From NCBI RefSeq assembly GCF_001625015.1, contig NZ_LVWJ02000014.1:2046001-2110000 (forward strand): a stretch of DNA of 64,000 nucleotides. The letters are read 5' to 3'. A program made the translations under genes and the position numbers. The number at the start of each line of letters is the position of its first letter. Positions within the stretch are counted from its first letter, which is position 1. Of this stretch, positions 5,711 through 60,900 are shown piece after piece. The stretch comes from Lewinella sp. 4G2. Lineage in GTDB: Bacteria; Bacteroidota; Bacteroidia; Chitinophagales; Saprospiraceae. The notes under the pieces were generated by a model, which was given only the letters and a program-made list of their open reading frames with translations, was not told the origin of the DNA and did not search any database.

Positions 5711-5715
5711 CCCCC

Positions 5716-6496: not shown

Positions 6497-6498
6497 TT

Positions 6499-7137
6499 TC
6501 AAGCTTTAGAGTTAGATCTACGTATTCCAATTAATTTCTCAGTCGAGAAATAATTGCAAAGCGTACCTCCCCTCTGCCCAAAATAATCTAACGCAGAAGA
6601 GTAAGGCCAGCTAGTTGAATGGTCAACTATGTTTGCCTTCACAGGATTGTCGTGGATATAGTGAAAGCAGGTTTTTAGATAGGCTTTCAAGTTCTGTGGT
6701 GTCGCCGTGTCTGGTAATGAAAATGAGTTCTGTTCATACATCTTGTGTACTGGAACAACTTTTGTTTTAGGGCGAAATAGGCTACCTCTTCGGCCGTGCT
6801 GTGCATTAAACCCCCTTGTATAGCTACTAAGTAATACCTTGATTTTTTGACTGAATTGTTGCTGAAAATATACGCCTTCGGCCTCACCCGACGATGCCGG
6901 ACGCTGTACCGTACTGTCGGAACAGCCATAGTCATTCGGTACCAGTAGGATGTGAAAATGAGTAGGCATTAAACAGTAACAGAGTATATCACAAACAGGA
7001 AGCAATTCCTTCCTCATCTTCTTGATGAAGTAGAGATAGTTGTCGTCTGATTTAAATAACTTTTCAGAGTTGTTCGTCTGATTGTAGACGTGGTATACTG
7101 TATTTAATGTTAACATAATTGAAGGTATGAATTTCAT
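6499..7137 (-). CDS. REP-associated tyrosine transposase (RAYT, TnpA-REP family)
   Basis: A 212-aa HUH single-strand endonuclease of the Y1/IS200-like group that processes REP hairpins. The sequence shows the HUH motif in PTHFHILL (H60, H62), a Tyr in SSYTRGFN (Y106) as candidate nucleophile, and the RAYT-type tail YIHDNPVKA (160-168) with WPYSS (177-181). The start at 7137 (MKFIPSIML) was chosen because an in-frame upstream ATG at 7266 would translate 43 residues of the hairpin repeats; a GGAAC stretch sits just upstream of 7137. An insertion around residues 70-92 separates the HUH motif from the helix with Y106. It is embedded in 11 copies of a 59-bp palindrome, the genomic context expected of a RAYT and its REP substrates. 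Base composition is more A/T rich than the neighbouring genes, which suggests acquisition. Confidence 0.92.
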   Translation of the reverse strand: MKFIPSIMLTLNTVYHVYNQTNNSEKLFKSDDNYLYFIKKMRKELLPVCDILCYCLMPTHFHILLVPNDYGCSDSTVQRPASSGEAEGVYFQQQFSQKIKVLLSSYTRGFNAQHGRRGSLFRPKTKVVPVHKMYEQNSFSLPDTATPQNLKAYLKTCFHYIHDNPVKANIVDHSTSWPYSSALDYFGQRGGTLCNYFSTEKLIGIRRSNSKA

Positions 7138-36900: not shown

Positions 36901-39900
36901 TGACTTTTGAAGCAGACCTTACGGTTGGTGGCACGGTGTACACTTGGGACTTTGGTATCAACGCCAGCCCAGCTACCGCAACCGGTGCCGGCCCTCACGT
37001 GGTAACCTACACGCTACCCGCGAGTCAGAATGGCAATGGTGCCTCAACGGCCACTTTGACCACAACACGCAATGGTTGCACCGATGAAGATCAGCAAGTG
37101 ATCACCATTTTTGACGAACCTGAAGTGACCAGTATCTCTACCGTGGATCCAACCTGTACGCAGGCCAATGGCTCCATTACGGTAAATTTTGTGAATAACC
37201 CAAGCCGAGTAAGTATCTCCTTTAGCATTGACGGAGGTGTCACGTATCCTTACTCAACCTCAGTTGATCAGGAAAGCATCACCATTACCGGACTTAGCGC
37301 TGGCAACTACGACCTATTTGCTCGTTGGGGTAATGCTAATTGCCCGATCGACATCGAAGACGCTACGCTTATCGATCAATCAGGCCCTGCAGTGACTGCC
37401 TCAAACGATGTAGAGATCTGCGTTGGTGGTAGTACAACCATCTCGGCAACCTCTGCTGGCGGAACTATGCCCGTTTCATTCGTATGGAATATGGGCGCTG
37501 GCGCGGGTGCGAGCGTAAGTGTGACGCCTACTGAAACAACGACCTACACCGTTACTGCGACCGACGCTAACGGCTGTATAAGTACCGATGAAGTTACGGT
37601 AACGGTTAACCCACTTCCGGTTGTTTCGGTTCCTAACCAAACGATCTGCCAGGAAGAGGATGTGACCCTCGTTGCTAATGTCACCGTCGGAGAAGCTCCA
37701 TTTACTTATGCTTGGAGCACTGGCGCTACCTCTAGTTCAGTTACTATTGATAACCTGCAGGCTACCACTAGTTACAGCGTTACGGTAACGGACGCAAACG
37801 GATGTGTAGGTGAGACAAATACAACAGTTACGGTAAATCCCCTTCCGGTTCCGGATCTGAGTGATGACATATCTATCTGCCAGGGAGAGTCTACTACCCT
37901 TTTGGTAGAAGGCGTATTCTTTTCTACGGCGATGCCTTTCACTTATGAATGGTTTAAAGCTGATGCCCCATCCAATATTCTGAGTACAACTACTGAGCTT
38001 ACGGTAACTCCGTCAACGATTGGTGTACACAATTACTTCGTCCGTGTGACTGACGCCAATGGCTGTTTTGAGCGCGACGTAGTAATGGTCACCGTCCTGC
38101 CTCAACCTTCCGTTGAGGTAAATGATGATGAGATCTGTCTCGGAGCTACCGCTACCCTCACCGCAACCGTAACCGGAGGAGATGGTACGATCTCCTACGA
38201 ATGGTCTACTGGAGAAACGACTCAGTCTATCCAGGTATCTCCCCAGACAACTACCGATTACACTGTAACGGTAACTGCTACTTCCGTCAGCTCTGATGGC
38301 GGCGTCACGGAATGTACGGATGAAGCGACCTCAACCGTCACGGTGAATGAGCTTCCGTCTATCACTGTTACTAGCGATGATCCTAACGATACGCTTTGTG
38401 AAGGTGGTTCCGCATCCGTTACGGCAACCGTCAACGGTGGCGCAGCTCCTTACACGTATGTGTGGACGGTAGCTGGCTCTTCGACGGTAATCTCTACTCA
38501 GAATGCCATTGAGGTATCTCCATCATCCACCACTACCTACGAGGTGGTTGTTACGGACAGTAAGGGTTGTGAAAACTCAGAAACCTTTGAACTTGGCGTA
38601 GACGATAAGGAGTGTGCAACGCTCGGAGATCTGGTCTTCCTAGATCGAAACGCCAATGGTCAGCAAGATGCCATGGACGTAGGAATCGAAGATGCGACTG
38701 TTAACCTGCTTTCTGAAGGGACGCTTGTAGCGACAACTCAAACAGACAACGACGGTATTTACGAATTTGACGGCCTGGTTCCAGGCGTTGAATATCAGGT
38801 TGAATTCCCTGCTCCAGCTGGTCTGGAACGTAGCCCCGCCAATACGGGTAATGACGATACGATTGATTCCGATGCCAACATAAACACCGGACTTTCTCCA
38901 ACAATCATCCTCGCTACTGGTGAAACAAACAATACGGTGGATGCAGGCTTCTACGAAACTGCATCTATTGGTGACTACGTTTTCCACGATGAAAACGCTG
39001 ATGGTCTACAGAATGCGACCGAAGAAGGTATTGACAATGTCACTGTCAACCTGCTTGAAGATGGATCTCAGGTAGCCACAACCACAACAGATGCTGACGG
39101 CGCTTACGAGTTTACTGATCTTACACCAGGGGTAGAATATGTCGTGGAGTTTGAAGCTCCCGCCGGCACCGAGCCTAGTCCAGTGAACGTTGGAAGCGAC
39201 GATACTAAAGATTCCGATGCTGATCCAATTTCCGGACGGACAAGCACAATCATCCTAGCTAGTGGTGAAAATGACGAAACCAATGATGCAGGCTTCTTCT
39301 CGACGGCCTCTATTGGAGACTTTGTCTTCCTCGACGATAACGCAAACGGTCAGCAAGATGCCGGTGAAGAAGGTATCGACGATGTAACGGTTAACCTTTT
39401 GGTCGATGGCACCGAAGTGGCATCCACCACAACCGACGCTGACGGTGCTTACCAATTTACTTCTCTTACCCCCGGTGAAGAATATGTCGTTGAATTTGAA
39501 GCTCCAACCGGTTTGCGCGCGGCTCCGCAAAATGTAGGAGGCGACACTACTGATAGCGATGCTGATGAGACAACCGGTCTCAGCCAGACTGTTACCCTAA
39601 TGAGTGGAGAGAATAATCCAACTATTGATGCTGGATTCTTCCAGCCAGGAGTAATTGGCGACTTCGTTTTCCTCGACGAAAATGCTGATGGTATCCAAGA
39701 TCCTGGTGAACGAGGCATTGCCGACGCTACCGTAAATCTATTAGATGAGAACGGAAACGTGGTTGCAACAACCACAACGGACGCAAACGGTAACTATGAA
39801 TTCAGAGATGTCACTCCCGGAGATTACATCATTGAATTTGTTACTCCACTTGGTACCGTCACTTCACCAGTTAATGTCGGTAGTGACGATGAAAGAGACT

Positions 39901-42900
39901 CTGATGCCGATATGACTACCGGCCAGACGTTTGCTTTCACCCTTTCTAGTGGAGAAGAGGATATGTCTAACGACGCTGGTTTCTATGAAACTGCTTCTAT
40001 CGGTGACTTCGTCTTCCTCGACGACAATGCTAACGGCCAGCAGGATGCCGGCGAAGAAGGTATCAAAGATGTGACTATCAACCTATTGGAAGACGGTGCT
40101 CAGGTAGCAACCACTACCACGGATGCCGACGGTGCCTACGAGTTCACGGAACTCACGCCCGGCGTAGAGTACGTAGTTGAGTTCGAAGCTCCAACCGGCT
40201 TCCGCACCGCTCCACAAAACGTGGGCAACGATGCTACGGACAGCGATGCCGACGAAACGACTGGTCTAAGCCAGCCTATCGTCCTTACGAGTGGCGAGGA
40301 CAACGAAACCATCGATGCTGGTTACTTCGAAACTGGTGTGATCGGCGACTTCGTCTTCCTTGACGAAGATGCAGATGGTATCCAAGACCCAACTGAAGAC
40401 GGAATTGAGGGTGTCACTGTCAACCTGCTTGACGAGAACGGTGATGTGGTAGCAACCACGACTACTGATGCTGACGGCGCCTATGAGTTCACGGACGTTG
40501 TTCCTGGTGACTACGTGGTAGAGTTTGAAGCTCCCGCCGGAACCGAGCCTAGCCCAGTTGATGCTGGTGGCGACGACGCAACTGATTCTGATGCTGACCC
40601 AATTACAGGTCGGACGGGTACGATCACGATCACGAGTGGTGAAGAAGACGACACGAACGACGCTGGTTTCTACGAGACCGCCGCAATTGGTGACTTCGTC
40701 TTCCTTGACGACAACGCTAACGGCCAACAAGATGCTGGCGAAGAAGGTATCGAAGACGTAACTGTAAATCTGTTAGCCGACGGCACTCAAGTAGCCACGA
40801 CTACCACTGATGCAGACGGTGCATACGAATTTACCTCCCTCACCCCCGGTGAAGAGTATGTGGTCGAGTTCGAAGCTCCCACTGGCTTCCGTGCCGCCCC
40901 ACAAAACGTAGGCGACGACGCAACCGACAGTGATGCCGACGAGACGACTGGCCTGAGCCAGACAGTAGTCCTGATGTCCGGAGAGAACAACGAGACCATC
41001 GACGCTGGTTACTTCGAGACTGCTTCTATCGGTGACTTCGTCTTCCTCGATGATGATGCGGACGGTGTTCAGGATGCCGGCGAAGAAGGCATCGAAGACG
41101 TTACCGTCAACTTGCTTAACGAAAATGGCGACGTGGTAGCAACGACCACCACCGATGCCGACGGCGCCTACGAGTTCACGGATGTAATTCCTGGTGACTA
41201 CGTAGTGGAGTTTGAAGCTCCCGCAGGTACTGAGCCAAGCCCAGTTAACGCTGGCGGCGACGATGCAATTGACTCTGATGCCGATCCAATTACCGGTCAA
41301 ACTGGTACGATTACGCTCACGAGTGGCGAAGAAGACGATACTAACGACGCCGGTTTCTACGAGACCGCTTCGCTTGGTGATTTCGTCTTCCTCGACGACA
41401 ATGCCAACGGCCAGCAGGATGCTGGCGAAGAAGGCATCGAAGCGGTTACCGTCAACCTACTGGAAGACGGTGCGCAGGTAGCAACGACTACCACTGATGC
41501 TGACGGTGCCTACGAGTTCACCGAACTCACGCCTGGTGTGGAATATGTAGTTGAGTTCGAAGCCCCTCTCGGACTACGCACTGCTCCGCAGAATGTGGGT
41601 GACGATGCTACCGATAGCGATGCGGATGAGACTACCGGTTTAAGCCCAGTAGTTATTCTTTCCAGTGGCGAGAATAATGAAACAATTGATGCTGGTTACT
41701 TTGAGACTGGTTCCATTGGCGACTTCGTCTTCCTAGATATGGATGCCGATGGTGTTCAGGATCCAGGTGAAGAAGGCATCGAAGACGTGACCGTAAACCT
41801 GCTTGACGAAAACGGTGATGTGGTAGCAACTACTACGACGGATGCTGACGGCGCCTACGAGTTCACGGACGTTATTCCTGGTGACTACGTAGTTGAGTTT
41901 GAAGCACCTGCCGGTACCGAGCCTAGCCCGGTTGATGCTGGTGGCGATGATGCAACTGACTCCGATGCCGATCCGGTAACGGGCCAGACGGGTACGATTA
42001 CCATTTCGAGTGGTGAAGACGACGACACGAACGATGCCGGCTTCTTTACGACTGCCGCCATCGGTGACTTTGTCTTCCTTGACGACAATGCTAACGGTCA
42101 GCAAGATGCAGGCGAAGAAGGCATCGAAAACGTAACGGTCAATTTGTTGGTCGACGGCGCTCAAGTAGCAACTACAACAACTGATGCTGACGGTGCTTAC
42201 GAGTTCACTTCCCTAATGCCTGGTGAGGAATACGTCGTAGAGTTCGAAGCTCCGACCGGCTTGCGTGCTGCCCCACAAAACGTGGGTGACGACGCTACTG
42301 ATAGCGACGCCGACGAGACGACTGGCCTGAGCCAGACGGTAGTCCTCATGTCCGCAGAGAACAACGAGACGATTGACGCTGGATTCTACGAGACTGCATC
42401 AATCGGTGACTTCGTCTTCCTCGATGAGGATGCCGACGGCGTTCAGGATGCCGGCGAAGAAGGCATCGAAGACGTGACCGTCAACCTGCTTGACGAGAAC
42501 GGTGATGTAGTGGCAACGACCACTACTGATGCTGATGGCGCCTACGAGTTCACGGACGTCGTTCCTGGTGACTACGTAGTAGAGTTCGAAGCTCCCGCAG
42601 GTACTGAGCCTAGCCCTGTTAACGCTGGTGGCGACGATGCAACTGACTCCGATGCCGATCCGATTACCGGTCAAACCGGTACGATCACGCTCACGAGCGG
42701 AGAAGAAGACGACACGAACGACGCTGGTTTCTACGAGACCGCTTCACTTGGTGATTTCGTCTTCCTCGACGACAACGCTAACGGTCAGCAGGATGCTGGC
42801 GAAGAAGGCATCGAAGATGTCACCATTAATCTGTTGGAAGATGGCGCTCAGGTAGCAACCACTACCACTGATGCTGACGGTGCTTACGAGTTCACCGAAC

Positions 42901-45900
42901 TCACGCCTGGCGTAGAGTACGTAGTTGAGTTCGAAGCTCCAACCGGCTTCCGCACCGCTCCACAAAACGTGGGCGACGATGCTACGGACAGCGATGCCGA
43001 CGAAACGACTGGTCTAAGCCAGCCTATCGTCCTTACGAGTGGCGAGGACAACGAAACCATCGATGCTGGTTACTTCGAAACTGGTGTAATCGGCGACTTC
43101 GTCTTCCTTGACGAAGATGCAGATGGTATCCAAGACCCAACTGAAGACGGAATTGAGGGTGTCACTGTCAACCTGCTTGACGAGAACGGTGATGTGGTAG
43201 CAACCACGACTACTGATGCTGACGGCGCCTATGAGTTCACGGACGTTGTTCCTGGTGACTACGTGGTAGAGTTTGAAGCTCCCGCCGGAACCGAGCCTAG
43301 CCCAGTTGATGCTGGTGGCGACGACGCAACTGATTCTGATGCTGACCCAATTACAGGTCGGACGGGCACGATCACGATCACGAGTGGTGAAGAAGACGAC
43401 ACGAACGACGCTGGTTTCTACGAGACCGCCGCAATTGGTGACTTCGTCTTCCTTGACGACAACGCTAACGGCCAACAAGATGCTGGCGAAGAGGGTATCG
43501 AAGACGTGACTGTAAATCTGATAGCCGACGGCACTCAAGTAGCCACGACTACCACGGATGCAGACGGTGCTTACGAATTCACCTCCCTCACCCCCGGTGA
43601 AGAGTATGTGGTCGAGTTCGAAGCTCCCACTGGCTTCCGTGCCGCCCCACAAAATGTGGGCGATGACGCAAGCGACAGTGACGCTGACGAAACGACTGGT
43701 CTGAGCCAGACGGTAGTCCTGATGTCCGGTGAGAACAACGAGACCATCGACGCTGGTTACTTTGAGACGGCTTCTATCGGTGACTTCGTCTTCCTCGATG
43801 ATGATGCGGACGGTGTTCAGGATGCCGGCGAAGAAGGCATCGAAGATGTAACCGTCAACTTGCTTGACGAAAATGGCGACGTGGTAGCAACGACCACCAC
43901 CGATGCCGACGGCGCCTACGAGTTCACGGATGTAATTCCTGGTGACTACGGAGTGGAGTTTGAAGCTCCCGCAGGTACTGAGCCTAGCCCAGTTAACGCT
44001 GGCGGCGACGATGCAACCGACTCCGATGCCGATCCAATTACCGGTCAAACTGGTACGATCACGCTCACGAGTGGCGAAGAAGACGATACTAACGACGCTG
44101 GTTTCTACGAGACCGCTTCGCTCGGTGACTTCGTCTTCCTCGACGACAACGCTAACGGCCAACAGGATGCTGGCGAAGAAGGCATCGAAGGGGTGACCGT
44201 CAACCTACTGGAAGATGGCGCTCAGGTAGCAACGACTACCACGGATGCAGATGGTGCCTACGAATTCACGGAACTCACGCCTGGCGCGGAGTACGTAGTT
44301 GAGTTCGAAGCCCCCATGGGTCTGCGCACAGCTCCACAAAACGTTGGTGACGACGCCACCGATAGCGATGCGGATGAGATTACCGGTTTAAGCCCGATCG
44401 TAATTCTTTCCAGTGGCGAGAACAACGAGACCATTGACGCTGGATACTTCGAGACTGGTTCCATTGGTGACTTCGTTTTCCTAGACATGGATGCCGACGG
44501 TATCCAGGACCCAAGCGAAGAAGGTATTGAAGACGTGACCGTCAACCTGCTTGACGAAAATGGTGATGTGGTAGCAACTACCACCACTGATGCTGACGGC
44601 GCCTATGAGTTCACGGATGTTGTTCCTGGTGACTACGTAGTAGAGTTTGAAGCACCTGCCGGTACCGAGCCTAGCCCGGTCAATGCTGGTGGCGATGACG
44701 CAACCGACTCCGATGCTGATCCGGTAACGGGCCAGACGGGTACGATCACAATCACGAGTGGTGAAGAAGACGACACGAACGATGCTGGCTTCTTTACGAC
44801 CGCCGCCATCGGTGATTTTGTCTTCCTCGACGACAACGCCAACGGCCAGCAAGATGCTGGCGAAGAAGGCATCGAAAATGTAACGGTCAATTTGTTGGTC
44901 GACGGCGCTCAAGTAGCAACTACAACAACTGATGCTGACGGTGCTTACGAGTTCACTTCCCTAATGCCTGGTGAGGAATACGTCGTAGAGTTCGAAGCTC
45001 CGACCGGCTTGCGTGCTGCCCCACAAAACGTGGGTGACGACGCTACTGATAGCGACGCCGACGAGACGACTGGCCTGAGCCAGACGGTAGTCCTCATGTC
45101 CGCAGAGAACAACGAGACGATTGACGCTGGTTTCTACGAGACTGCTTCTATCGGTGACTTCGTCTTCCTCGACGACAATGCTAACGGCGTTCAGGATGCC
45201 GGCGAGGAAGGCATCGAAGACGTGACTATCAATCTGCTTGACGAGAACGGTGATGTAGTGGCGACCACGACTACTGATGTCGACGGTGCCTACGAGTTCA
45301 CGGATGTTGTTCCTGGTGACTACGTAGTAGAGTTTGAAGCACCTGCCGGCACCGAGCCTAGCCCAGTTAACGCTGGTGGCGACGATGCAACCGACTCCGA
45401 TGCTGATCCAATTACCGGTCAAACCGGTACGATTACGATCACGAGTGGCGAAGAAGACGATACTAACGATGCTGGTTTCTACGAGACCGCTTCGCTCGGG
45501 GATTTCGTCTTCCTCGACGACAACGCTAACGGTCAGCAGGATGCTGGCGAAGAAGGCATCGAAGATGTCACCATTAATCTGTTGGAAGATGGCGCTCAGG
45601 TAGCAACCACTACCACTGATGCTGACGGTGCTTACGAGTTCACCGAACTCACGCCTGGCGTAGAGTACGTAGTTGAGTTCGAAGCTCCAACCGGCTTCCG
45701 CACCGCTCCACAAAACGTGGGCGACGATGCTACGGACAGCGATGCTGATGAAACGACTGGTCTGAGCCAGCCTATCATCCTCACGAGTGGTGAGAACAAC
45801 GAGACCATCGACGCTGGCTACTTTGAGACTGGTTCTATTGGTGACTTCGTCTTCCTAGACATGGATGCCGACGGCGTTCAGGACCCAAGCGAGGAAGGCA

Positions 45901-48900
45901 TCGAAGACGTGACCGTTAACCTGCTTGACGAAAACGGTGATGTGGTAGCAACTACTACGACGGATGCTGACGGCACCTACGAGTTCACGAACGTGGTTCC
46001 TGGTGACTACGTAGTAGAGTTTGTAGCACCCGCCGGTACCGAGCCAAGCCCGGTCAACACTGGTGGTGATGACGCAACCGACTCCGATGCTGATCCTGTA
46101 ACGGGCCAGACGGGTACGATCACGATCACGAGTGGTGAGGACGACGATACGAACGATGCTGGCTTCTTTACGACTGCCGCCATCGGTGACTTTGTCTTCC
46201 TCGACGACAACGCCAACGGCCAGCAAGATGCTGGCGAAGAAGGCATCGAAGACGTAACGGTCAATCTGTTAGTCGATGGCGCTCAAGTTGCCACGACTAC
46301 CACTGATGCTGACGGTGCCTACGAGTTTACTTCCCTAATGCCAGGTGAAGAGTACGTAGTTGAGTTCGAAGCTCCGACCGGCTTCCGTGCCGCGCCACAA
46401 AATGTGGGCGATGACGCAAGCGACAGCGACGCTGACGAAGTGACTGGCCTGAGCCAGACGGTAGTCCTGATGTCCGGCGAGAACAACGAGACGATTGACG
46501 CTGGTTTCTACGAGACGGCTTCTATCGGTGACTTCGTCTTTCTCGATGAGGATGCGGACGGCGTTCAGGATGCTGGCGAAGAAGGCATCGAAGACGTAAC
46601 CGTCAACTTGCTTGATGAGAACGGTGATGTAGTGGCAACGACCACGACTGATGCTGATGGTGCCTACGAGTTCACGGACGTCGTTCCAGGTGACTACGTA
46701 GTGGAGTTTGAAGCTCCCGCGGGTACTGAGCCAAGCCCAGTTAACGCTAGTGGCGACGACGCAACTGACTCTGATGCCGATCCAATTACCGGTCAAACTG
46801 GTACGATTACGCTCACGAGCGGTGAAGAAGACGATACGAACGACGCCGGTTTCTACGAGACCGCTTCACTTGGTGACTTCGTCTTCCTCGACGATAATGC
46901 CAACGGTCAGCAGGATGCTGGCGAAGAAGGCATCGAAGCGGTTACCGTCAACCTACTGGAAGACGGTGCTCAGGTGGCAACCACTACCACGGATGCTGAC
47001 GGTGCTTACGAGTTTACCGAACTCACGCCTGGCGTAGAGTACGTAGTTGAGTTTGAAGCTCCAACCGGCTTCCGCACCGCTCCACAAAACGTGGGCGACG
47101 ATGCTACGGATAGTGATGCTGACGAGACGACTGGTCTGAGCCAGCCTATCATCCTCACGAGTGGTGAGAACAACGAGACCATCGACGCTGGCTACTTCGA
47201 AACTGGTGTGATCGGCGACTTCGTCTTCCTCGATGAAGATGCGGACGGCGTTCAGGACCCAGGTGAAGAAGGCATCGAAGACGTGACCGTCAACCTGCTT
47301 GATGAGAACGGTGATGTGGTCGCAACCACGACTACTGATGCTGACGGCGCCTACGAGTTCACGGACGTTGTTCCTGGTGACTACGTGGTAGAGTTTGAAG
47401 CTCCCGCCGGTACCGAGCCTAGCCCGGTAAACGCTGGTGGCGATGACGCAACCGACTCCGATGCTGATCCGGTAACGGGTCAAACGGGTACGATCACGAT
47501 CACGAGTGGGGAAGAAGACGACACGAACGACGCTGGCTTCTACGAGACGGCTTCTATCGGTGACTTCGTCTTCCTCGACGACAATGCTAATGGTCAGCAA
47601 GACGCTGACGACGAAGGCATTGAAGGCGTAACAGTTAACCTACTGGTCGATGGCGCTCAAGTTGCCACGACTACGACGGATGCTGACGGTGCTTACGAGT
47701 TCACGGATCTCACCCCGGGTGAGGAGTACGTAGTCGAGTTTGTCGCTCCTGCTGGCTTAGAAGCTACGCCTCAGGATGCGGGCGATGACGCTACGGATAG
47801 CGACGCTGACGAAGTGACTGGCCTGAGCCAGACGGTAGTCCTGATGTCCGGCGAGAACAACGAGACGATTGACGCTGGTTTCTACGAGACGGCTTCTATC
47901 GGTGACTTCGTCTTCCTCGATGAGAATGCGAACGGCGTTCAGGATGCCGGTGAAGAAGGCATCGAAGACGTGACCGTCAACTTGCTTGACGAGAACGGTG
48001 ATGTAGTAGCAACAACCACGACTGATGCTGATGGTGCCTACGAGTTCGCGGACGTTGTTCCTGGTGACTACGTAGTGGAGTTTGAAGCTCCCGCGGGTAC
48101 TGAGCCAAGCCCAGTTAACGCTGGTGGTGATGATGCAACTGACTCTGATGCCGATCCAATTACCGGTCAAACTGGTACGATCACAATCACGAGCGGAGAA
48201 GAAGACGATACTAACGACGCTGGTTTCTACGAGACCGCTTCACTCGGTGACTTCGTCTTCCTCGACGACAATGCCAACGGTCAGCAGGATGCCGGCGAAG
48301 AAGGCATCGAAGCGGTTACCGTCAACCTACTGGAAGACGGTGCTCAGGTGGCAACGACCACCACGGATGCGGATGGTGCTTACGAGTTCACCGAACTCAC
48401 GCCTGGCGTGGAGTACGTAGTTGAGTTTGAAGCTCCAACCGGCTTCCGCACCACTCCACAAAACGTGGGCGACGACGCTACGGATAGTGATGCTGACGAG
48501 ACGACTGGTCTGAGCCAGCCTGTCGTCCTCACGAGTGGTGAGAACAACGAGACCATCGACGCTGGCTACTTCGAAACTGGTGTGATCGGCGACTTCGTCT
48601 TCCTCGATGAGGATGCGGACGGTGTTCAGGATCCAGGTGAAGAAGGCATCGAAGACGTAACCGTTAACCTGCTTGATGAGACCGGTGATGTGGTCGCAAC
48701 CACGACTACTGATGCCGACGGCGCCTACGAGTTCACGGACGTTGTTCCTGGTGACTACGTGGTAGAGTTTGAAGCTCCCGCCGGTACCGAGCCTAGCCCG
48801 GTAAACGCTGGTGGCGATGACGCAACCGACTCCGATGCTGATCCGGTAACGGGTCAAACGGGTACGATCACGATCACGAGTGGGGAAGAAGACGACACGA

Positions 48901-51900
48901 ACGACGCTGGCTTCTACGAGACGGCTTCTATCGGTGACTTCGTTTTCCTCGACGAAAATGCTAATGGTCAGCAAGACGCTGACGACGAAGGCATTGAAGG
49001 CGTCACCGTTAACCTACTGGTCGATGGCGCTCAAGTTGCCACGACTACGACGGATGCTGACGGTGCTTACGAGTTCACGGATCTCACCCCTGGTGAGGAG
49101 TACGTAGTCGAGTTTGTCGCTCCTGCTGGCTTAGAAGCTACGCCTCAGGATGCGGGCGATGACGCTACAGATAGCGACGCTGACGAAGTGACTGGCCTGA
49201 GCCAGACGGTAGTCCTGATGTCCGGCGAGAACAACGAGACGATTGACGCTGGTTTCTACGAGACGGCTTCTATCGGCGACTTTGTCTTCCTTGATGAAGA
49301 TGCCAACGGTGTTCAGGATGCCGGCGAAGAAGGCATCGAAGACGTAACCGTCAACTTACTTGACGAGAACGGTGATGTAGTGGCAACGACTACGACGGAT
49401 GCTGACGGTGCCTACGAGTTCACGGATCTCACCCCCGGTGAAGATTACGTAGTTGAGTTCGAAGCACCTGTCGGTACTGAGCCTAGCCCAGTAGATGCTG
49501 GTGGCGACGATGCAACTGACTCCGATGCCGATCCGGTAACGGGGCAGACGGGTACGATCACGCTCACGAGCGGAGAAGAAGACGACACGAACGACGCCGG
49601 TTTCTACGAGACCGCTTCGCTCGGTGACTTTGTCTTCCTCGACGACAATGCTAATGGGCAGCAGGATGCCGGCGAAGAAGGCATCGAAGATGTTACCGTC
49701 AACCTATTGGAAGATGGTGCTCAGGTAGCAACGACTACGACGGATGCCGACGGTGCTTACGAGTTCACCGAACTCACACCTGGTGTAGAGTACGTGGTTG
49801 AGTTTGAAGCTCCAACCGGCTTCCGCACCGCTCCACAAAACGTGGGCGACGACGCTACGGATAGTGATGCTGACGAGACGACTGGTCTTAGCCAAACGGT
49901 AGTCCTCATCAGTGGTGAAAACAACGAAACGATTGATGCCGGTTACTTCGAAACTGGTGTGATCGGCGACTTCGTCTTCCTCGATGAGAATGCGGACGGT
50001 GTTCAGGATCCAGGTGAAGAAGGCATCGAAGACGTGACCGTCAACCTGCTTGATGAGAACGGTGATGTGGTAGCAACCACGACTACTGATGCCGACGGCG
50101 CCTACGAGTTCACGGACGTTGTTCCTGGTGACTACGTGGTAGAGTTTGAAGCTCCCGCCGGAACCGAACCTAGCCCGGTAAACGCTGGTGGCGATGATGC
50201 AACTGATTCCGATGCTGATCCGGTAACGGGTCAAACGGGTACGATCACGATCACGAGTGGGGAAGAAGACGACACGAACGACGCTGGCTTCTACGAGACG
50301 GCTTCTATCGGTGACTTCGTCTTCCTCGACGACAATGCTAACGGTCAGCAAGACGCTGACGACGAAGGCATTGAAGGCGTAACCGTTAACCTACTGGTCG
50401 ATGGCGCTCAAGTTGCCACGACTACCACGGATGCTGATGGTGCTTACGAATTCACGGACCTAACTCCCGGTGAGGAATACGTGGTCGAGTTTGTCGCTCC
50501 TGCTGGCTTGGAAGCCTCACCCCAAGATGAAGGCGATGACGCTACGGATAGCGACGCTGACGAAGTAACTGGCCTAAGCCAGACGGTAGTCCTGATGTCC
50601 GGCGAGAACAACGAGACGATTGACGCTGGATTTTACGAGACTGCAACAATCGGCGACTTCGTCTTCCTTGACGAAGATGCGGACGGCGTTCAGGATGCCG
50701 GTGAAGAAGGTATCGAAAACGTAGTCGTCAACTTGCTTGACGAGAACGGTGATGTAGTGGCAACCACTACGACAGATGCTGATGGTGCCTACGAGTTTAC
50801 AGATCTCACCCCCGGTGAAGATTACGTAGTTGAGTTCGAAGCACCTGCAGGTACTGAGCCTAGCCCAGTTGATGCTGGTGGCAACGATGCAACTGACTCC
50901 GATGCTGATCCAATCACCGGTCAAACCGGTACGATCACGCTCACAAGCGGTGAAGAAGACGACACGAACGACGCCGGTTTCTACGAGACCGCTTCGCTCG
51001 GTGACTTCGTCTTCCTCGACGACAACGCCAACGGTCAGCAGGATGCTGGCGAAGAAGGTATTGAAAACGTAACCGTCAACCTGCTGGAAGATGGTGCTCA
51101 GGTAGCAACCACTACCACGGATGCCGACGGTGCCTACGAGTTCACCGAACTCACGCCCGGCGTAGAGTACGTGGTTGAATTCGAAGCTCCAACCGGCTTC
51201 CGCACCGCTCCACAAAACGTGGGCGACGACGCTACTGACAGTGATGCAGACGAGACGACTGGTCTAAGCCAGACAGTAGTCCTCACGAGCGGCGAGAACA
51301 ACGAGACCATTGACGCTGGTTACTTCGAAACTGGTGTGATCGGCGACTTCGTCTTCCTCGATGAGGATGCCGACGGTGTTCAGGATCCAGGTGAAGAAGG
51401 CATCGAAGACGTGACCGTCAACCTGCTTGATGAGAACGGTGATGTGGTCGCAACCACGACTACTGATGCCGACGGCGCCTACGAGTTCACGGACGTTGTT
51501 CCTGGTGACTACGTAGTAGAGTTCGAAGCACCTGCCGGAACCGAGCCTAGCCCGGTAAACGCTGGTGGCGACGACGCAACCGACTCCGATGCCGATCCGA
51601 TTACGGGCCAGACGGGTACGATCACCATTACGAGCGGTGAAGAAGACGACACGAACGACGCTGGCTTCTACGAGACGGCTTCTATCGGTGACTTCGTTTT
51701 CCTCGACGACAATGCTAACGGTCAGCAAGACGCTGACGACGAAGGCATTGAAGGCGTCACCGTTAACCTACTGGTCGATGGCGCTCAAGTTGCCACGACT
51801 ACGACGGATGCTGACGGTGCTTACGAGTTCACGGATCTCACTCCCGGTGAGGAGTACGTAGTCGAGTTTGTCGCTCCTGCTGGCTTGGAAGCTGCTCCTC

Positions 51901-54900
51901 AGGATGAAGGCGATGACGCTACGGATAGCGACGCTGACGAAGTGACTGGCCTGAGCCAGACGGTAGTCCTGATGTCCGGCGAGAACAACGAAACGATTGA
52001 CGCTGGTTTCTACGAGACGGCTTCTATCGGCGACTTCGTCTTCCTTGACGAAGATGCGGACGGCGTTCAGGATGCCGGCGAAGAAGGTATCGAAGACGTG
52101 ACCGTCAACCTGCTTGATGAGAACGGTGATGTAGTGGCAACAACTACGACGGATGCTGATGGTGCCTACGAGTTTACTGATCTCACCCCCGGTGAAGATT
52201 TCGTAGTGGAGTTCGAAGCTCCTGCGGGTACTGAGCCTAGCCCAGTTAATGCTGGTGGCGATGATGCAACTGACTCTGATGCCGATCCAATTACCGGTCA
52301 AACGGGTACGATCACGCTCACGAGCGGCGAAGAAGACGACACGAACGACGCTGGTTTCTACGAGACCGCTTCACTTGGTGACTTCGTTTTCCTTGACGAC
52401 AATGCCAACGGTCAGCAGGATGCTGGCGAAGAAGGCATCGAAGCGGTTACCGTCAACCTACTGGAAGACGGTGCTCAGGTGGCAACGACCACCACGGATG
52501 CTGATGGTGCTTACGAGTTCACCGAACTCACGCCTGGCGTGGAGTACGTAGTTGAGTTTGAAGCTCCAACCGGCTTCCGCACCGCTCCACAAAACGTGGG
52601 CGACGACGCTACTGATAGCGATGCAGACGAGATGACTGGTCTAAGCCAGACAGTAGTCCTCACGAGTGGTGAGAACAACGAGACCATCGACGCTGGCTAC
52701 TTCGAAACTGGTGTGATCGGCGACTTCGTCTTCCTCGATGAGGATGCGGACGGTATTCAGGATCCAGGTGAAGAAGGCATCGAAGACGTGACCGTTAACC
52801 TGCTTGATGAGAACGGTGATGTGGTCGCAACCACGACTACTGATTCCGACGGCGCCTACGAGTTCACGGATGTAATTCCTGGAGATTACGTAGTCGAATT
52901 TGAAGCACCTGCCGGAACCGAGCCAAGCCCGGTCAACACTGGTGGCGACGACGCAACTGACTCCGATGCCGATCCGGTAACGGGCCAGACGGGTACGATT
53001 ACGATCACGAGTGGAGAAAAAGATGACACGAACGACGCTGGCTTCTACGAGACGGCTTCTATCGGTGACTTCGTCTTCCTCGACGACAATGCTAACGGTC
53101 AGCAAGACGCTGACGACGAAGGCATTGAAGGCGTTACCGTTAACCTACTGGTCGATGGCGCTCAAGTTGCCACGACTACCACGGACGCCGACGGTGCTTA
53201 CGAATTCACGGACCTGACTCCTGGTGAGGAATACGTGGTCGAGTTTGTCGCTCCAGCTGGCTTTGAAGCCTCACCCCAAGATGAAGGTGATGACGCTACG
53301 GATAGCGACGCTGACGAAACGACTGGCCTAAGCCAAACGGTAGTCCTCATGTCCGGAGAGGACAACGAGACAATCGATGCTGGTTTCTACGAGACTGCTT
53401 CTATCGGTGACTTCGTCTTCCTCGATGAGGATGCGAACGGCGTTCAGGATGCCGGTGAAGAAGGTATCGAAAACGTAGTCGTCAACTTGCTTGACGAGAA
53501 CGGTGATGTAGTAGCAACCACTACGACTGATGCCGACGGTGCCTACGAGTTTACGGATCTCACCCCCGGTGAAGATTACATAGTTGAGTTCGAAGCTCCC
53601 GTGGGTACTGAACCTAGCCCAGTTGATGCTGGTGGCGACGATGCAACTGACTCCGATGCCGATCCAATCACCGGTCAAACGGGTACGATCATGCTCACGA
53701 GCGGAGAAGAAGACGATACGAACGACGCTGGTTTCTACGAGACCGCTTCGCTCGGTGACTTCGTCTTCCTCGACGACAATGCTAATGGGCAGCAGGATGC
53801 CGGCGAAGAAGGCATCGAAGATGTAACCGTCAACCTGCTGGAAGATGGTGCTCAGGTAGCTACCACTACCACGGATGCAGACGGTGCCTACGAGTTCACC
53901 GAACTCACACCTGGTGTAGAGTACGTGGTCGAGTTTGTTGCTCCGGCTGGGTTTGAAGCTTCTCCACAGGACGAAGGCGACGATGCTACAGATAGCGACG
54001 CCGACGAGACGACTGGTCTGAGCCAGCCTATCGTCCTCACAAGTGGTGAGAACAACGAGACCATCGACGCCGGTTACTTCGAAACTGGTGTGATCGGCGA
54101 CTTCGTCTTCCTCGATGAGGATGCGGACGGTGTTCAGGATCCAGGTGAAGAAGGCATCGAAGACGTAACCGTCAACCTGCTTGACGAGAACGGTGATGTG
54201 GTCGCAACCACGACTACTGATGCCGACGGCGCCTACGAGTTCACGGACGTTGTTCCTGGTGACTACGTGGTAGAGTTTGAAGCTCCCGCCGGAACCGAGC
54301 CTAGCCCGGTAAACGCTGGTGGCGACGACGCAACCGACTCCGATGCTGATCCGGTAACGGGTCAAACGGGTACGATCACGATCACGAGTGGGGAAGAAGA
54401 CGACACGAACGACGCTGGCTTCTACGAGACGGCTTCTATCGGTGACTTCGTCTTCCTCGACGACAATGCTAACGGGCAGCAAGATGCAGGCGATGAAGGC
54501 ATTGAAGGCGTTACCGTTAATCTACTGGTCGATGGCGCTCAAGTTGCCACGACTACCACGGATGCTGATGGTGCTTACGAGTTTACGGATCTCACCCCTG
54601 GTGAGGAATACGTGGTCGAGTTTGTCGCTCCATCTGGCTTCGAAGCCTCACCCCAAGATGAAGGCGATGACGCTACAGATAGCGACGCTGACGAAGTAAC
54701 TGGCCTAAGCCAGACGGTAGTCCTGATGTCTGGCGAGAACAACGAGACGATTGACGCTGGTTTCTACGAGACTGCATCAATCGGCGACTTCGTCTTCCTC
54801 GATGAAAACTTGGATGGTATCCAAGATGCCGGTGAAGAAGGTATCGAAGACGTAACCGTCAACCTGCTTGATGAGAACGATGATGTGGTAGCAACCACGT

Positions 54901-57900
54901 CCACCGATACTGATGGTGCGTACGAGTTCTCCGGCCTGACTCCTGGCGAGCAGTACGTAGTAGAATTTGAAGCACCTACAGGATTTGAAGGTTCTCCTCA
55001 AGATATTGGTGATGATACTCTGGATAGTGATGCTGATCCTGTCTCTGGACTCAGCCAGTCAGTAGTTCTCTCGTCTGGAGAGAATAATGAAACGGTAGAT
55101 GCAGGACTGTTCGAATCCATCTATGACCTATCACTAGATAAGTCTGTAACATCTGTTGGCCCATACACTCAAGGCTCTGTTGTCTCCTACGACATTACTG
55201 TTTCTAACGACGGAAATCTTGATGCCAACTTGGTTGTTGTCGAGGATCGTCCAGCCATCGGACTAACCTTCGTTAGCCTCAACAGCGGAGATGTAACTGA
55301 TAACGGTGATGGTACTTTTACCTTAAACAATACTCTTGTACGTCGGGACCAAATCACCTTCAACGTGAGCTACGAGATCAGCGCGACCTTCCAGGGCACC
55401 AGCCTTGCGAACGTAGCCGAGATCACGGAAGATGATGGTGACGACAACGACTCTACGCCGGACAACGACATACCGACTGAAGATGATCAGGACGATGAGA
55501 CGATCACGGTGGATCAGGTATACGACCTGTCCCTCACCAAATCTGTCACTTCTTCCGGTCCTTATGCCCAAGGCTCCACGGTTTCTTACGATATCGTCGT
55601 AACGAACGACGGTAGCCTCGACGCCAACCTGGTAGTAGTAGAAGATCGCCCAGCTGCTGGCCTGACGTTCACCAGCCTCAACGGTGGTGATGTAACGGAC
55701 AACGGTGACGGCACCTTCACGCTCAACAACACGTTGGCCCAGGGTGAAAGCCTGACCTTCAACGTGAGCTACGAGATCAGCGCGACCTTCCAGGGCACCA
55801 GCCTTGCGAACGTAGCCGAGATCACGGAAGATGACGGTGACGACACCGACTCTACGCCGGACAATGACGTTCCGACGGAGGACGATCAAGACGACGAGAC
55901 GATCACGGTAGATCAGGTTTACGACCTGTCCCTAACTAAGTCCGTCACTTCTTCCGGTCCTTACGCCCAAGGCTCCACGGTTTCCTACGATATCGTCGTA
56001 ACAAACGACGGTAGCCTCGACGCCAACCTGGTAGTAGTAGAAGATCGCCCGGCTGCTGGCCTGACGTTCACCAGCCTCAACGGTGGTGATGTAACGGACA
56101 ACGGTGACGGCACCTTCACGCTCAACAATACGTTAGCTCAGGGTGAGAGCCTGACCTTTAACGTCAGCTACGAGATCAGCGCGACCTTCCAGGGCACGAG
56201 CCTTGCGAACGTAGCCGAGATCACGGAAGATGATGGTGACGATACCGACTCTACGCCGGACAACGACGTACCGACGGAAGACGACCAGGACGACGAGACG
56301 ATCACGGTAGATCAGGTCTACGACCTGTCCCTAACCAAGTCTGTCACTTCTTCCGGTCCTTATGCCCAAGGCTCCACGGTTTCTTACGACATCGTCGTAA
56401 CGAACGACGGTAGCCTTGACGCCAACTTGGTAGTAGTAGAAGATCGCCCGGCTGCCGGCCTGACGTTCACCAGCCTGAACGGCGGTGACGTAACGGATAA
56501 CGGCGACGGCACCTTTACGCTCAACAACACGTTGGCCCAGGGTGAGAGCCTGACCTTCAACATCAGCTACGAGATCAGCGCAACCTTCCAGGGCACCAGC
56601 CTTGCGAACGTAGCCGAGATTACGGAAGATGATGGTGACGACAACGACTCTACGCCGGACAACGACGTACCGACGGAAGACGACCAGGACGACGAGACGA
56701 TCACCGTAGATCAGGTTTACGACCTATCCCTGACTAAGTCCGTCACTTCTTCCGGTCCTTACGCCCAGGGCTCCACGGTTTCCTACGACATCGTCGTAAC
56801 GAACGAGGGTAGCCTTGACGCCAACTTGGTCGTAGTAGAAGATCGCCCGGCTGCCGGCCTGACGTTCACCAGCCTCAACGGTGGTGATGTAACGGACAAC
56901 GGTGACGGCACCTTCACGCTCAACAACACGTTGGCTCAGGGTGAGAGCCTGACCTTCAACGTGAGCTACGAGATCAGCGCAACCTTCCAGGGCACCAGCC
57001 TTGCGAACGTAGCTGAGATCACGGAAGATGATGGTGACGACAACGACTCTACGCCGGACAACGACGTACCGACGGAAGACGATCAGGACGACGAGACGAT
57101 CACGGTAGATCAGGTCTACGACCTGTCCCTCACCAAATCAGTCACTTCTTCCGGCCCTTATGCCCAAGTCTCCACGGTTTCCTACGACATCGTCGTAACG
57201 AACGACGGTAGCCTCGACGCCAACCTGGTAGTAGTAGAAGATCGCCCAGCTGCCGGCCTGACGTTCACCAGCCTCAACGGTGGTGATGTAACGGACAACG
57301 GTGACGGCACCTTCACGCTCAACAACACTTTGGCCCAGGGTGAAAGCCTGACCTTCAACGTGAGCTACGAGATCAGCGCAACCTTCCAGGGCACGAGCCT
57401 TGCGAACGTAGCTGAGATCACGGAAGATGATGGTGACGACAACGACTCTACGCCGGACAACGACGTACCGACTGAAGACGATCAGGACGACGAGACGATC
57501 ACGGTGGATCAGGTCTACGACCTGTCCCTCACCAAGTCCGTCACTTCTTCCGGTCCTTACGCTCAGGGCTCTACGGTTTCTTACGATATCGTCGTAACGA
57601 ACGACGGTAGCCTCGACGCCAACTTGGTAGTAGTAGAAGATCGCCCGGCTACTGGCCTGACATTCACCAGCCTCAACGGCGGTGACGTGACGGACAACGG
57701 CGACGGCACCTTCACGCTCAACAACACGTTGGCCCAGGGTGAAAGCCTGACCTTCAACGTGAGCTACGAGATCAGCGCAACCTTCCAGGGCACGAGCCTT
57801 GCGAACGTAGCCGAGATCACGGAAGATGATGGTGACGACAACGACTCTACGCCGGACAACGACGTACCGACTGAAGATGATCAGGACGATGAGACGATCA

Positions 57901-60900
57901 CGGTAGATCAGGTATATGATCTATCCCTTACTAAGACGACACTGAATGGTGGGCCTTTCCAGCCTGGTAACATTGTATTCTACGCACTCGTAGTCACCAA
58001 TGAAGGAAGTCTGGATGCTACTCAGGTTGAGGTGACGGATGATCCACAATCAGGATTAGTGTTTACTTCTATGACCTCAAATCCTAACGTAACCAACAAT
58101 AATGATGGCACCTTCACGATCGCCTCTCTACCTCAGGGAGCGACCGAGACGATCATCATTACCTACGTTATTGATGCGACCTTCACTGGAACAAGTCTGA
58201 CGAACTACGCTCAGATTACTGAAGATGATGGCGATGATGTTGACTCGGACCCAGATAGTGGAAACTTCGACGATGACTTTAACGATGGCGTTGAGGACGA
58301 CGATGAAGATGAAACTACCGTCACGATCAATCAAACTCCCAGCATTGAAATCGAGAAGGCTACTTTCGATCCGATGAGCGGTATGTTCATGGATGCGGAT
58401 ACGTACAATCCAGCCAACCCAATGGGAGTTCCGACTTACGTTTACGTACGTCAGGTAGGTGCTACGGTCTCTTGGGAGTACACCGTATGCAACAACGGAA
58501 CTCAGGATTTGGTGAATGTAGATGTTGTCGATGACCGTGAAGGATTCATTGGTACGATCATGAACCTGCCAGTAGGAGAATGTACCACGCTTAATGCATC
58601 GGCACCAGCTCAACCTACTAATCCAAACTACCGTAACGAAGCAACTGCGACTGGACAACCCGTCGATCAGTTTGGCAACCCATCCGGTAGCCCGGTCTCT
58701 GATTCAGATCCTTCGAACTACGTAGGTATTGAATTTAACGTAGAGAAAGTGGCGAGCCAGGATACTGTTTGTGCAGGAACGGAAGTCGAGTACTCGATTT
58801 TCCTCCGGATCAACGGCCCGTCAGGTACCAATGCTCGCCGGGTAATGCTGACGGACAATATGTTCCCCAACGTCGAGGACCAGTTCATTGAGTCTACGGA
58901 CGTCAACATGAACAACCGTCTGGATGATATGGAAGAGTGGACTTACCGCTACTCCGTGATTCTGGACGAGACACGGACCAACATCGCCACGGAGATGTTC
59001 AATATCTACATCGGTGACCAATTCATCACAATGATCGAGAATGACTTCGAGACTACGGTTACCGTTCTTGATGGTCCTGAAGGCGTTGCTGCTGATGCGG
59101 ATATTGATGGAAGTATCTCCTGCAACGGAGCCGAAGATGGCTCTGCCACGGTTACTGTAAGTGGCGGTACTGCGCCATACTCAATTACTTGGGATGCCGC
59201 TACGGGTAACCAAATGGGTGCAACCGCTACTGGCCTCGGTGCCGGTACGTACGAAGCCATTATTGAGGATGCAAACGGATGTAGAGATACCGCTACCGTC
59301 ACGCTCATTGAACCAACCGTCCTAGAAACAGAAGTAGTAAACGATACCCTACCTTGCTTCGGTGATGTAGGTACGGTTACAGTTGCTGCCACGGGTGGTA
59401 CGGAAGATTACACGTATGCTTGGTCTTCCGGAGAGACAACTGCTACGATTAGTGATAAGACCGCAGGTGATTACATAGTCACCGTCACGGACGCTAACGG
59501 CTGTACCTCACTCGACACGGCAACTATCGTTCAACCTGCAGCTCCACTCTCTGCTACGGTTGAAAGCACTTCCGCAAACTGTGAAGGCTCCATTGATGGC
59601 ACCCTTACGGTAATTGCTGAAGGAGGTACTCCAGACTACACGTACCGTTGGGCTACCATCCCCGTACAGACAACTGCGACCGCAGAAAATCTGACGGCTG
59701 GTACCTACTCAGTGACAGTGACCGATGCAAACGACTGTGAATTTGTTACAACCGGAACAGTGGCTGAGCCTGGTGGCTTGACTGTTTCTGTTGTCGATGC
59801 CACCGTCGAATGTGCCGGTGACGCCACCGCTACCCTTACCGCTATGACCAGTAGTGGAACGGAGGCTTACACCTACGTATGGAGCAATGGTGAAACATCC
59901 CCGAGCATCAGCGACTTAGCTGCTGGTACTTACGGTGTTACCGTTACTGATGCAAACGGCTGTGATGCGGAAACAACGGCATCGGTAACTGAACCACCCG
60001 TACTGACAGTAACTGTAGAAATCACGGAACTGGAATGTAACGAGGTGAACGCAGGTATCATCGAACTATCCATCATCGGAGGCACTGAGCCTTATGCCAT
60101 CGACTGGGCAGATATTGATGGGACGGACGACCCTGCACTGAGAACTGACCTAGCTGCGGGAACCTACTCAGTTACAGTATCCGACGCTAACGATTGTACT
60201 TACGAAGATGATATCGTGATCGCCCCCGCACCCACACTGGTAGCTAGTGTCGCCAATGACACTATTTGTGTCGGTGCTGGAGATCAGGGTGAGCTCACGG
60301 TTGAAGCAGTCGGCAGTGGCACGTACACTTACCTTTGGAGCGATGGACAAACGGAGCAGACTGCTACCAACTTGGTAGAGGGCACTTACACCGTTACGGT
60401 CACGGATGAAATGTCCGCCTGTAGCGTTGAAGTAACCGCTCAAGTTGTAGAGTCTGAACTGGCTTGCAACGAACTAGGTAATTACGCTTGGTTCGATGCT
60501 AACCAAAACGGTATCCAGGACAACCTTATGTCAGGTGCTCCTGAGATGCCGGTTGCTGGCCTGGTTGTAGACCTCTACACAAGTGATGACGTACTCGTCG
60601 GCTCCGAAACAACTGACGAAGACGGATTCTACCTGTTCACTGGCCTGCCGAATGGTGACTACTACGTAACCTCCGATGGCCTACCAGTCCCTGCCCAGGG
60701 CCAGCCATTTACGGTAACGATCGAAAACCAGGGTGGTGATGATGAACTCGATAGTGACGTCATTCGCGTAACTGGACGTACCGAAGTAATTAACCTCGGT
60801 CCGAACGAAAGTGACCTGACCTGGGATATTGGCTTCGTACGCAGCTTCGATGGAGAGATCTCCGATCCTTGTAATTGCTTGAACGATGCTACTAACGCAG

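What the first reader, a model, noticed from the sequence alone, without database searches (positions are those of the whole stretch)
40002..55121. Higher-order repeat inside a coding gene: 11 units of four distinct modules (A-B-C-D)
Neighbouring SdrD-B modules differ from each other, but every fourth module is nearly the same. Unit starts step by 1374 bp (then 1377 bp) eleven times. This is the organisation of alpha-satellite DNA, yet it encodes protein. It implies that growth occurred by four-module steps, or that selection keeps the A-B-C-D order, for instance to avoid misfolding between identical neighbours.
Basis: seen in the sequence. Interest (0 to 1): 0.85.

Follow-up and report, generated by a model that had tools for sequence, protein, structure and literature searches.

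The report
Giant protein with four-domain super-repeat
A 16,096-residue bacterial protein, predicted to sit on the cell surface, carries 48 similar domains whose DNA repeats in an A-B-C-D order that was likely built by copying blocks of two, then four, then eight domains; the pattern is real, mostly old, and resembles the super-repeats already known from the muscle protein titin.

Summary
Eleven units of four SdrD_B modules start at 39999 and step 1374 bp six times, then 1377 bp four times; all 43 modules from 39999 to 54779 have their closest relative at a multiple of four modules, none next door. The array is larger (48 modules, 38622-55121) and nested: DNA identity 67.5% at lag 1, 80.7% at 2, 89.0% at 4, 90.5% at 8. 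Same-letter modules have synonymous divergence 0.5-0.7 and dN/dS about 0.06: mostly old and conserved, not freshly homogenised. Best account: nested duplication, then recombination in four- or eight-module register, since neighbours share only short identical runs (median 17 nt against 39 at lag 4). Misfolding avoidance is not needed for the order of four: in the DUF11 array of the same protein five of seven neighbour pairs are 93-95% identical in DNA. Two other giant frames of this genome show orders of five and two; 34 of 107 surveyed SdrD_B arrays are higher-order. Known kind (titin, nebulin, NBPF); a clean bacterial case.

The parts
24930..64000 (+). Reading frame of the giant protein, from an ATG followed by a hydrophobic stretch read by eye as a signal peptide; it runs on beyond the window to a stop at window-frame 73218 (16,096 aa)
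28458..35348 (+). Ig-like (YQWQ) repeats of about 97 aa; one block of about 2.3 kb is present twice (three of its four matched pairs 92-96% DNA identity, the fourth 82%)
38622..39998 (+). Modules m00-m03, diverged leading SdrD_B modules (mean 66-69% DNA identity to the units)
39999..41372 (+). Unit 1, A-B-C-D (m04-m07)
41373..42746 (+). Unit 2, A-B-C-D (m08-m11)
42747..44120 (+). Unit 3, A-B-C-D (m12-m15); 96% DNA identity to unit 1
44121..45494 (+). Unit 4, A-B-C-D (m16-m19); 91% DNA identity to unit 2, so 39999-42746 and 42747-45494 look like an eight-module duplication
45495..46868 (+). Unit 5, A-B-C-D (m20-m23), mosaic: nearest relatives of its modules lie in different units
46869..48242 (+). 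Unit 6, A-B-C-D (m24-m27)
48243..49619 (+). Unit 7, A-B-C-D (m28-m31), first unit with the extra codon in D
49620..50996 (+). Unit 8, A-B-C-D (m32-m35)
50997..52373 (+). Unit 9, A-B-C-D (m36-m39)
52374..53750 (+). Unit 10, A-B-C-D (m40-m43)
53751..55121 (+). Unit 11, A-B-C plus a diverged last module m47 (54780-55121) that groups with the A/C side in the nucleotide tree; its A module m44 has a C-like stretch
55122..57914 (+). Seven DUF11 modules of 399 bp, a single-module array with near-identical neighbours (internal control); an eighth, diverged copy follows
60471..61856 (+). Two further, isolated SdrD_B modules (60471-60836 and 61527-61856)

Best explanation
This is a 48-module SdrD_B stretch of a 16,096-residue protein that is predicted to be exported by the type IX secretion system, and its A-B-C-D order was likely built by nested duplication (one module to two, two to four, four to eight), after which recombination would have paired mainly same-letter modules because neighbours share too little identical DNA. 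Shown: the nested lags, the eight-module block, the diverged ends, strong conservation of the protein in every letter class, and the difference in identical-run length between neighbours and same-letter modules. Inferred: that homologous recombination (unequal exchange and conversion) is the process, that the array works as a long stalk or spacer, and that the order of four is mostly history while the odd/even difference may still be held by selection.
For: Mean DNA identity by lag for modules 4-46: 1 .675, 2 .807, 3 .673, 4 .890, 5 .676, 6 .807, 7 .675, 8 .905. Raw-DNA autocorrelation without any module parsing has its three highest values at 687 (.715), 1374 (.654) and 2748 bp (.636), the latter two diluted by the later 1377-bp steps. 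Longest identical run: lag 1 median 17 nt (max 32, none >=40), lag 3 median 17, lag 4 median 39 (max 213), lag 8 median 46 (max 278). Diverged ends: modules 0-3 and 47, as expected where exchange is rarer at array ends (recalled). Same-letter modules dS .51-.71, dN/dS .055-.072; neighbours are nearly saturated at synonymous sites: codon identity at same-aa sites .476 against .436 expected from codon usage. Class-crossing exchange is rare: by 60-nt windows 1 of 43 modules (m19) is clearly closer to another class, by 30-nt windows 2 of 43 (m19, m31). Same genome: a 27-module array with period 5 (25 of 27 nearest relatives at multiples of five; 1000 shuffles at most 14) and an array of which 22 of 23 modules were analysed, with lag-2 identity .82 against .61 aa at lag 1. 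Within-class dN/dS by site: shared residues .019, odd/even-distinguishing .094 (95% .047-.161), other class-differing .211 (.139-.297).
Against: The held genomes are one per species, so no change of unit number between strains could be seen; the recombination events are read from identity patterns only. Some class-crossing exists: m19 carries B-like sequence, and m44 (A) has a stretch closer to C (.84) than to A (.70), just under my threshold. dS values near or above 1 rest on a simple correction (Nei-Gojobori counts, Jukes-Cantor). Several branches of the module tree have low support. The parity count of the order-two array (19 of 22) was reached by the best of 1000 shuffles, so its period rests on the lag means. 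Export and stalk function are predictions; the structure model was poor (mean pLDDT 51).
Confidence: 0.72

Rival explanations
1. Selection against identical neighbours keeps the A-B-C-D order: adjacent modules must differ so that they do not misfold together.
For: Neighbours are 69% identical in protein while lag-4 modules are 94%. [quoted passage not shown] Residues separating odd from even modules are constrained (dN/dS .094). In the first survey near-identical (>=.95) pairs are about ten times rarer at lag 1 than at lag 2.
Against: In the DUF11 array of the same protein five of seven neighbour pairs are 98.5-100% identical in protein; seven Thiothrix SdrD_B-like modules in a row have neighbours 97.7-100% identical; in the orthologous array of a same-genus relative (G015) modules 2 and 3 are 94.8% and 6 and 7 are 87.9% identical. 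SdrD_B neighbours above 70% mean identity occur in 10 of 107 surveyed arrays. Misfolding avoidance needs only two alternating types, not four. The lag-1 deficit did not repeat in the 45 arrays found only by the single-module query (>=.95: lag 1 .007, lag 2 .006).
Confidence: 0.17
2. The four positions have different jobs (for example partner sites spaced every fourth module), as proposed for titin super-repeats, and selection keeps all four types apart.
For: Four distinct module types are kept over eleven units while synonymous sites have diverged.
Against: The 17 columns that differ between classes without separating odd from even are the least constrained kind (dN/dS .211), and B and D differ on average at only 9% of residues. 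Orthologous arrays in same-genus species do not carry the same four types, and one orthologue (G006) has a single SdrD_B module at this place.
Confidence: 0.12
3. Assembly artefact: the periodicity comes from mis-joined or duplicated reads.
For: Assemblies of four relatives end inside the orthologous SdrD_B stretch and a fifth has a gap there, which shows the region is hard to assemble.
Against: Units 1-11 differ from each other at 13-60% of synonymous sites within an open frame of 16,096 codons and with dN/dS far below one; the window and the own-genome pieces checked hold no N. The exact unit number could still be off where copies are very alike (m05 and m13 99.7%).
Confidence: 0.03

Closest known systems
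Titin A-band super-repeats
   Different: Eukaryotic, units mixing Ig and FnIII domains (7 or 11 per unit, recalled), with thick-filament partners proposed per position; here one domain family, four per unit, in a bacterium, and no known partner.
Nebulin and other domain repeats that expand by several domains at a time
   Same: Expansion by several domains at a time is common and single-domain duplication less common; a unit of two is the most common overall, seven in nebulin (passages of PMC1553488).
   Different: That survey is mainly eukaryotic and finds few prokaryotic repeats; here the hierarchy is nested two-four-eight and orders differ between proteins of one genome.
NBPF (Olduvai) triplet higher-order repeats
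   Same: A higher-order repeat in protein-coding genes (abstract of PMC11675761).
   Different: Three-module units built of repeats of about 1.6 kb in primate genes, with tandem copy number that differs strongly between human and great apes; here four modules in 1374-1377 bp in an intron-free gene.
Alpha-satellite higher-order repeats
   Same: Diverged neighbours, alike units (recalled).
   Different: Coding, conserved by purifying selection, and units 1-11 are only 78-96% identical.
Periscope proteins (Rib, SHIRT, SasG stalks)
   Same: Long bacterial surface stalks of tandem domains (passages of PMC8201768).
   Different: Those have high DNA identity between repeats and varying copy number; here neighbours share 67.5% and copy-number variation could not be tested.
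Staphylococcal SdrD B repeats
   Same: Same domain family: an A-B module pair aligns over residues 1-227 of 229 with SdrD (10ps_A, E 2e-43).
   Different: Two to five such repeats in Sdr proteins (start of an abstract listed) against 48 here, and a Gram-positive wall anchor (recalled) against a type IX signal.

Membership tests
SdrD B-like domain (PF17210) | profile match above the curated cut-off | tested here: met
   48 of 48 contiguous modules are in the own-genome hit list with 114.8-137.6 bits against a cut-off of 29.7.
Type IX secretion type A cargo | C-terminal sorting domain | tested here: met
   TIGR04183 36 bits against cut-off 23, residues 995-1070 of the C-terminal piece; PF18962 32.5 against 27.
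Type IX secretion type A cargo | signal peptide | not tested
   Read by eye; no predictor was run.
Titin-like super-repeat | equal positions in successive units more alike than neighbours | tested here: met
   43 of 43.
Titin-like super-repeat | position-specific binding surface | not testable with these tools
   No partner known and no usable structure model.
Alpha-satellite-type higher-order repeat | neighbours diverged | tested here: met
   Lag 1 mean DNA identity .675.
Alpha-satellite-type higher-order repeat | units almost identical through recent homogenisation | tested here: not met
   Units 1-11: identity .78-.96, synonymous pS .13-.60.
Periscope protein | high identity between tandem neighbours | tested here: not met
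   Lag 1 .675 DNA.686 aa.
Periscope protein | copy number varies among strains | not testable with these tools
   One genome per species is held; relatives' contigs end or have a gap in the array.
SprB-like gliding adhesin | SprB repeats (PF13573) | tested here: met
   31.5 bits against cut-off 28 in window:31881-38621; the later SprB-like region was read by eye only.
SprB-like gliding adhesin | orthology to SprB and a role in gliding | not tested

The most novel reading that the evidence does not exclude
SdrD_B rods have a two-module structural period: odd and even modules are distinct, complementary types, arrays grow in even steps, and higher orders such as four and eight are neutral doublings of that functional pair. 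In this reading the array is a mutational record that separates a selected period (two) from a purely historical one (four) inside one gene.
Probability: 0.15. Interest if true: 0.65.

Novelty: new member of a known kind. Interest (0 to 1): 0.48.

Why it matters
It gives a bacterial, intron-free case of the super-repeat organisation known from titin and nebulin, with enough copies (11 units, 43 modules) and enough synonymous divergence to separate copying history from selection. The same genome holds arrays of the same domain with orders of two, four and five, and a single-module DUF11 array in the same protein, so the old question of why neighbouring domains of large proteins differ could be tested on natural variants.

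Tried and rejected
Even-step rule for the whole domain family: in the first survey (107 non-redundant arrays) near-identical pairs at >=.95 were .004 at lag 1.046 at lag 2.007 at lag 3.046 at lag 4. That query was itself a four-module unit, so I repeated the search with one diverged module. Per array, the lag richest in >=.9 pairs is even in 28 and odd in 17 of the 45 arrays (of 143) with at least two such pairs at one lag (two-sided p .135); one search recounted the same arrays by a slightly looser rule (50 arrays: 30 even, 20 odd). In the 45 arrays found only by the second query the pooled pattern was gone (.007.006.015.021 for lags 1-4). Period five in this genome also speaks against it. 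I keep it only as the novel case.

DUF11 as an outside control: 107 proteins, 95 arrays of at least five modules (nine were asked of SdrD_B), 79 non-redundant; >=.9 pairs .019 at lag 1 and .019 at lag 2; only 7 arrays had two or more such pairs (best lags 1, 1, 2, 2, 4, 5, 5), too few for a firm contrast.

Shared A-B-C-D across species: rejected. In the joint tree the window's four classes have no counterpart in the same-genus relatives, whose modules fall partly beside the window's A/C side and partly elsewhere. In one search four truncated modules were skipped and two that began before a contig edge were left out.

Structure: one AlphaFold job on five modules with 11 rows gave pLDDT 51 and pTM 0.24; not used.

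A search of the named genome collection gave 4 distant loci only; records near the window may be left out there.

It sharpened the neighbour identities in DUF11, Thiothrix and G015, so I lowered the misfolding rival from 0.20 to 0.17 and the novel case from 0.17 to 0.15, and it showed the C-like stretch in m44, now told under evidence against.
Full report
What is there. The window is G000:C14:2046001-2110000 of a 5.21-Mb genome in 21 contigs. From an ATG at 24930 one frame runs 16,096 codons to a stop at window-frame 73218, beyond the window. The protein has, in order, an N-terminal hydrophobic stretch (by eye), a CBM60 match, Ig-like repeats, 48 contiguous SdrD_B modules, DUF11 modules, SprB-like repeats (by eye) with further SdrD_B modules, and a type IX sorting domain at the C-terminus. 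The genus is probably Lewinella: relative G015 has a contig of 49,155 bases carrying the orthologue, and the protein search lists a partial SdrD_B protein of Lewinella sp. W8 on a contig of the same length. No call named the species of the window itself.

The repeat. Module starts lie 114-116 codons apart. Unit starts step 1374 bp six times and 1377 bp four times; the change is one extra codon in the D modules of units 7-10. DNA identity by lag for modules 4-46 is .675.807.673.890.676.807.675.905 for lags 1-8. All 43 of these modules have their nearest relative at a multiple of four, 22 of 43 at a multiple of eight, none next door; 2000 shuffles of the order gave at most 23. Autocorrelation of the raw DNA, without cutting modules, is highest at 687, 1374 and 2748 bp; the two-module lag comes first, in part because the later 1377-bp steps dilute 1374 and 2748. 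In the nucleotide tree A and C lie together, B and D together, with one D module (m19) at the base of B. Units 1 and 3 are 96% and 2 and 4 are 91% identical, so 39999-42746 looks duplicated as a block of eight; unit 5 is a mosaic. The first four modules and the last are diverged.

Age and selection. At sites where the residue is the same, neighbours use the same codon in .476 of cases, against .436 expected from codon usage: they are close to saturation. The figure is .589 at lag 2 and .747 at lag 4. Same-letter modules have dS .51-.71 and dN/dS .055-.072. The array is therefore mostly old, and the modules are held by purifying selection. Sorting sites by what they distinguish, dN/dS within classes is .019 at 70 shared columns.094 (.047-.161) at 26 columns that separate odd from even modules, and .211 (.139-.297) at 17 other differing columns; 3 gap columns were left out. 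The intervals of the last two overlap slightly. Sites that differ between classes are by definition more changeable, so I read this only as a hint that odd/even identity is held more firmly than the four-fold identity.

Why four. Identical runs long enough for homologous pairing are scarce between neighbours (median 17 nt, at most 32; 10% of pairs reach 25 nt) and common at lag 4 (median 39, at most 213; 82% reach 25 nt). That some 25 nt are needed for efficient recombination is recalled, not from a call. Exchange would thus run in four- or eight-module register once A, B, C and D had diverged. Class-crossing is rare but present: m19 (D) has B-like sequence, m31 a short B-like stretch, and m44 (A) a stretch closer to C (.84) than to A (.70). 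All this is inference from pattern; no event was observed.

Same protein, same genome. The DUF11 array next door is a plain single-module array: its seven neighbour pairs are .767.942.932.942.950.937 and, to the diverged eighth copy.484 identical in DNA. The Ig-like array has one large block present twice. Two other giant reading frames of this genome carry SdrD_B arrays with orders of five (27 modules; 25 of 27 nearest relatives at multiples of five) and two (22 of 23 modules analysed; lag 2 .82 against lag 1 .61 aa). A third SdrD_B stretch (L032, nine modules analysed) has no such order: neighbours are the most alike there (lag 1 .58, lag 2 .50 aa). So the order is a property of each array, not of the domain or the organism.

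Orthologues. The N-terminal unique part has strong matches (E at most 1e-98, 42-60% identity) in 8 of 20 same-genus relatives. In G002, G005, G011 and G014 the orthologue's contig ends inside SdrD_B sequence; in G015 a scaffold gap lies in it; in G006 there is one SdrD_B module followed by DUF11-like repeats; G010 and G018 were not read. G015 has lag-4 pairs of .905-1.0 for five of six pairs, with its own types, two of which are alike and adjacent (.948 and .879). G002 has its best pair at lag 2 (.96) and G011 at lag 4 (.95), both involving a module cut by the contig end. The window's modules are closer to each other (mean .79) than to those of the relatives compared (means .44-.65): arrays in the same place have evolved separately.

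Survey. Of 2002 proteins found with a four-module query I analysed the 120 listed, taking the longest array in each; 107 remain after merging near relatives. 34 of 107 are higher-order by a fixed rule (period 2 in 23, 8 in 6, 4 in 4, 3 in 1; eight was the longest period tested), and in 26 of 107 lag 1 is the best lag. A second search with one diverged module (120 listed of 268) brought the set to 195 proteins, 180 with arrays of at least nine modules, 143 non-redundant. Multi-module steps dominate among arrays with near-identical copies: the richest lag is 1 in 8 of 45. The even-lag excess seen in the first set was not repeated in the arrays new to the second (see Tried and rejected).

What is known. 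Expansion by several domains at a time, with two the most common unit and seven in nebulin, was reported in 2006 (passages read). Titin A-band super-repeats show the same position rule, minor at the ends (passages read). NBPF genes carry three-module higher-order repeats (abstract read). Divergence of neighbours as protection from misfolding was proposed from titin (passages), and Periscope proteins break that rule (passages). Very large surface proteins with many imperfect repeats and frequent recombination are described in Apilactobacillus kunkeei (passages). In the titles and abstract starts listed I saw no paper on a higher-order repeat in a bacterial adhesin gene; that is a statement about those eight searches of one open-access library only.

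Verdict. It is best read as a bacterial member of a known kind of protein evolution, with an unusually clean nested record.

Noticed in passing
window 5700-6500: Intergenic tandem set of long hairpins (GTCGTCGGACGAT...ATCGTCCGACGAC) behind mutS (3020-5710); an 18-base core pattern occurs 33 times in the genome, partly in clusters, and 0 times in the reversed control: an interspersed palindromic, REP-like family. No Rfam family matched the window.
   Followed up: partly
L029 (G000:C14:95000-113000), L030 (G000:C14:2612000-2631800): Two other giant frames (6465 and 6052 codons) with SdrD_B arrays of order five and order two.
   Followed up: yes
window 28458-35348: Ig-like array with one block of about 2.3 kb present twice, three of four matched pairs at 92-96% DNA identity.
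   Followed up: partly
L009, SprB-like region (genome C14 about 2108300-2111800): SprB-like repeats look ordered in threes (one CNG type, two CAG types); seen only in motif positions.
   Followed up: no
G000:C14:2121502-2126169: A paralogue of the C-terminal part lies about 2.3 kb behind the gene's stop (37-41% identity, one TAA inside the longer match).
   Followed up: no
L011 (Thiothrix fructosivorans): Seven SdrD_B-like modules 131 residues apart with neighbours 98-99.5% identical in DNA, beside a block repeated ten modules away.
   Followed up: partly
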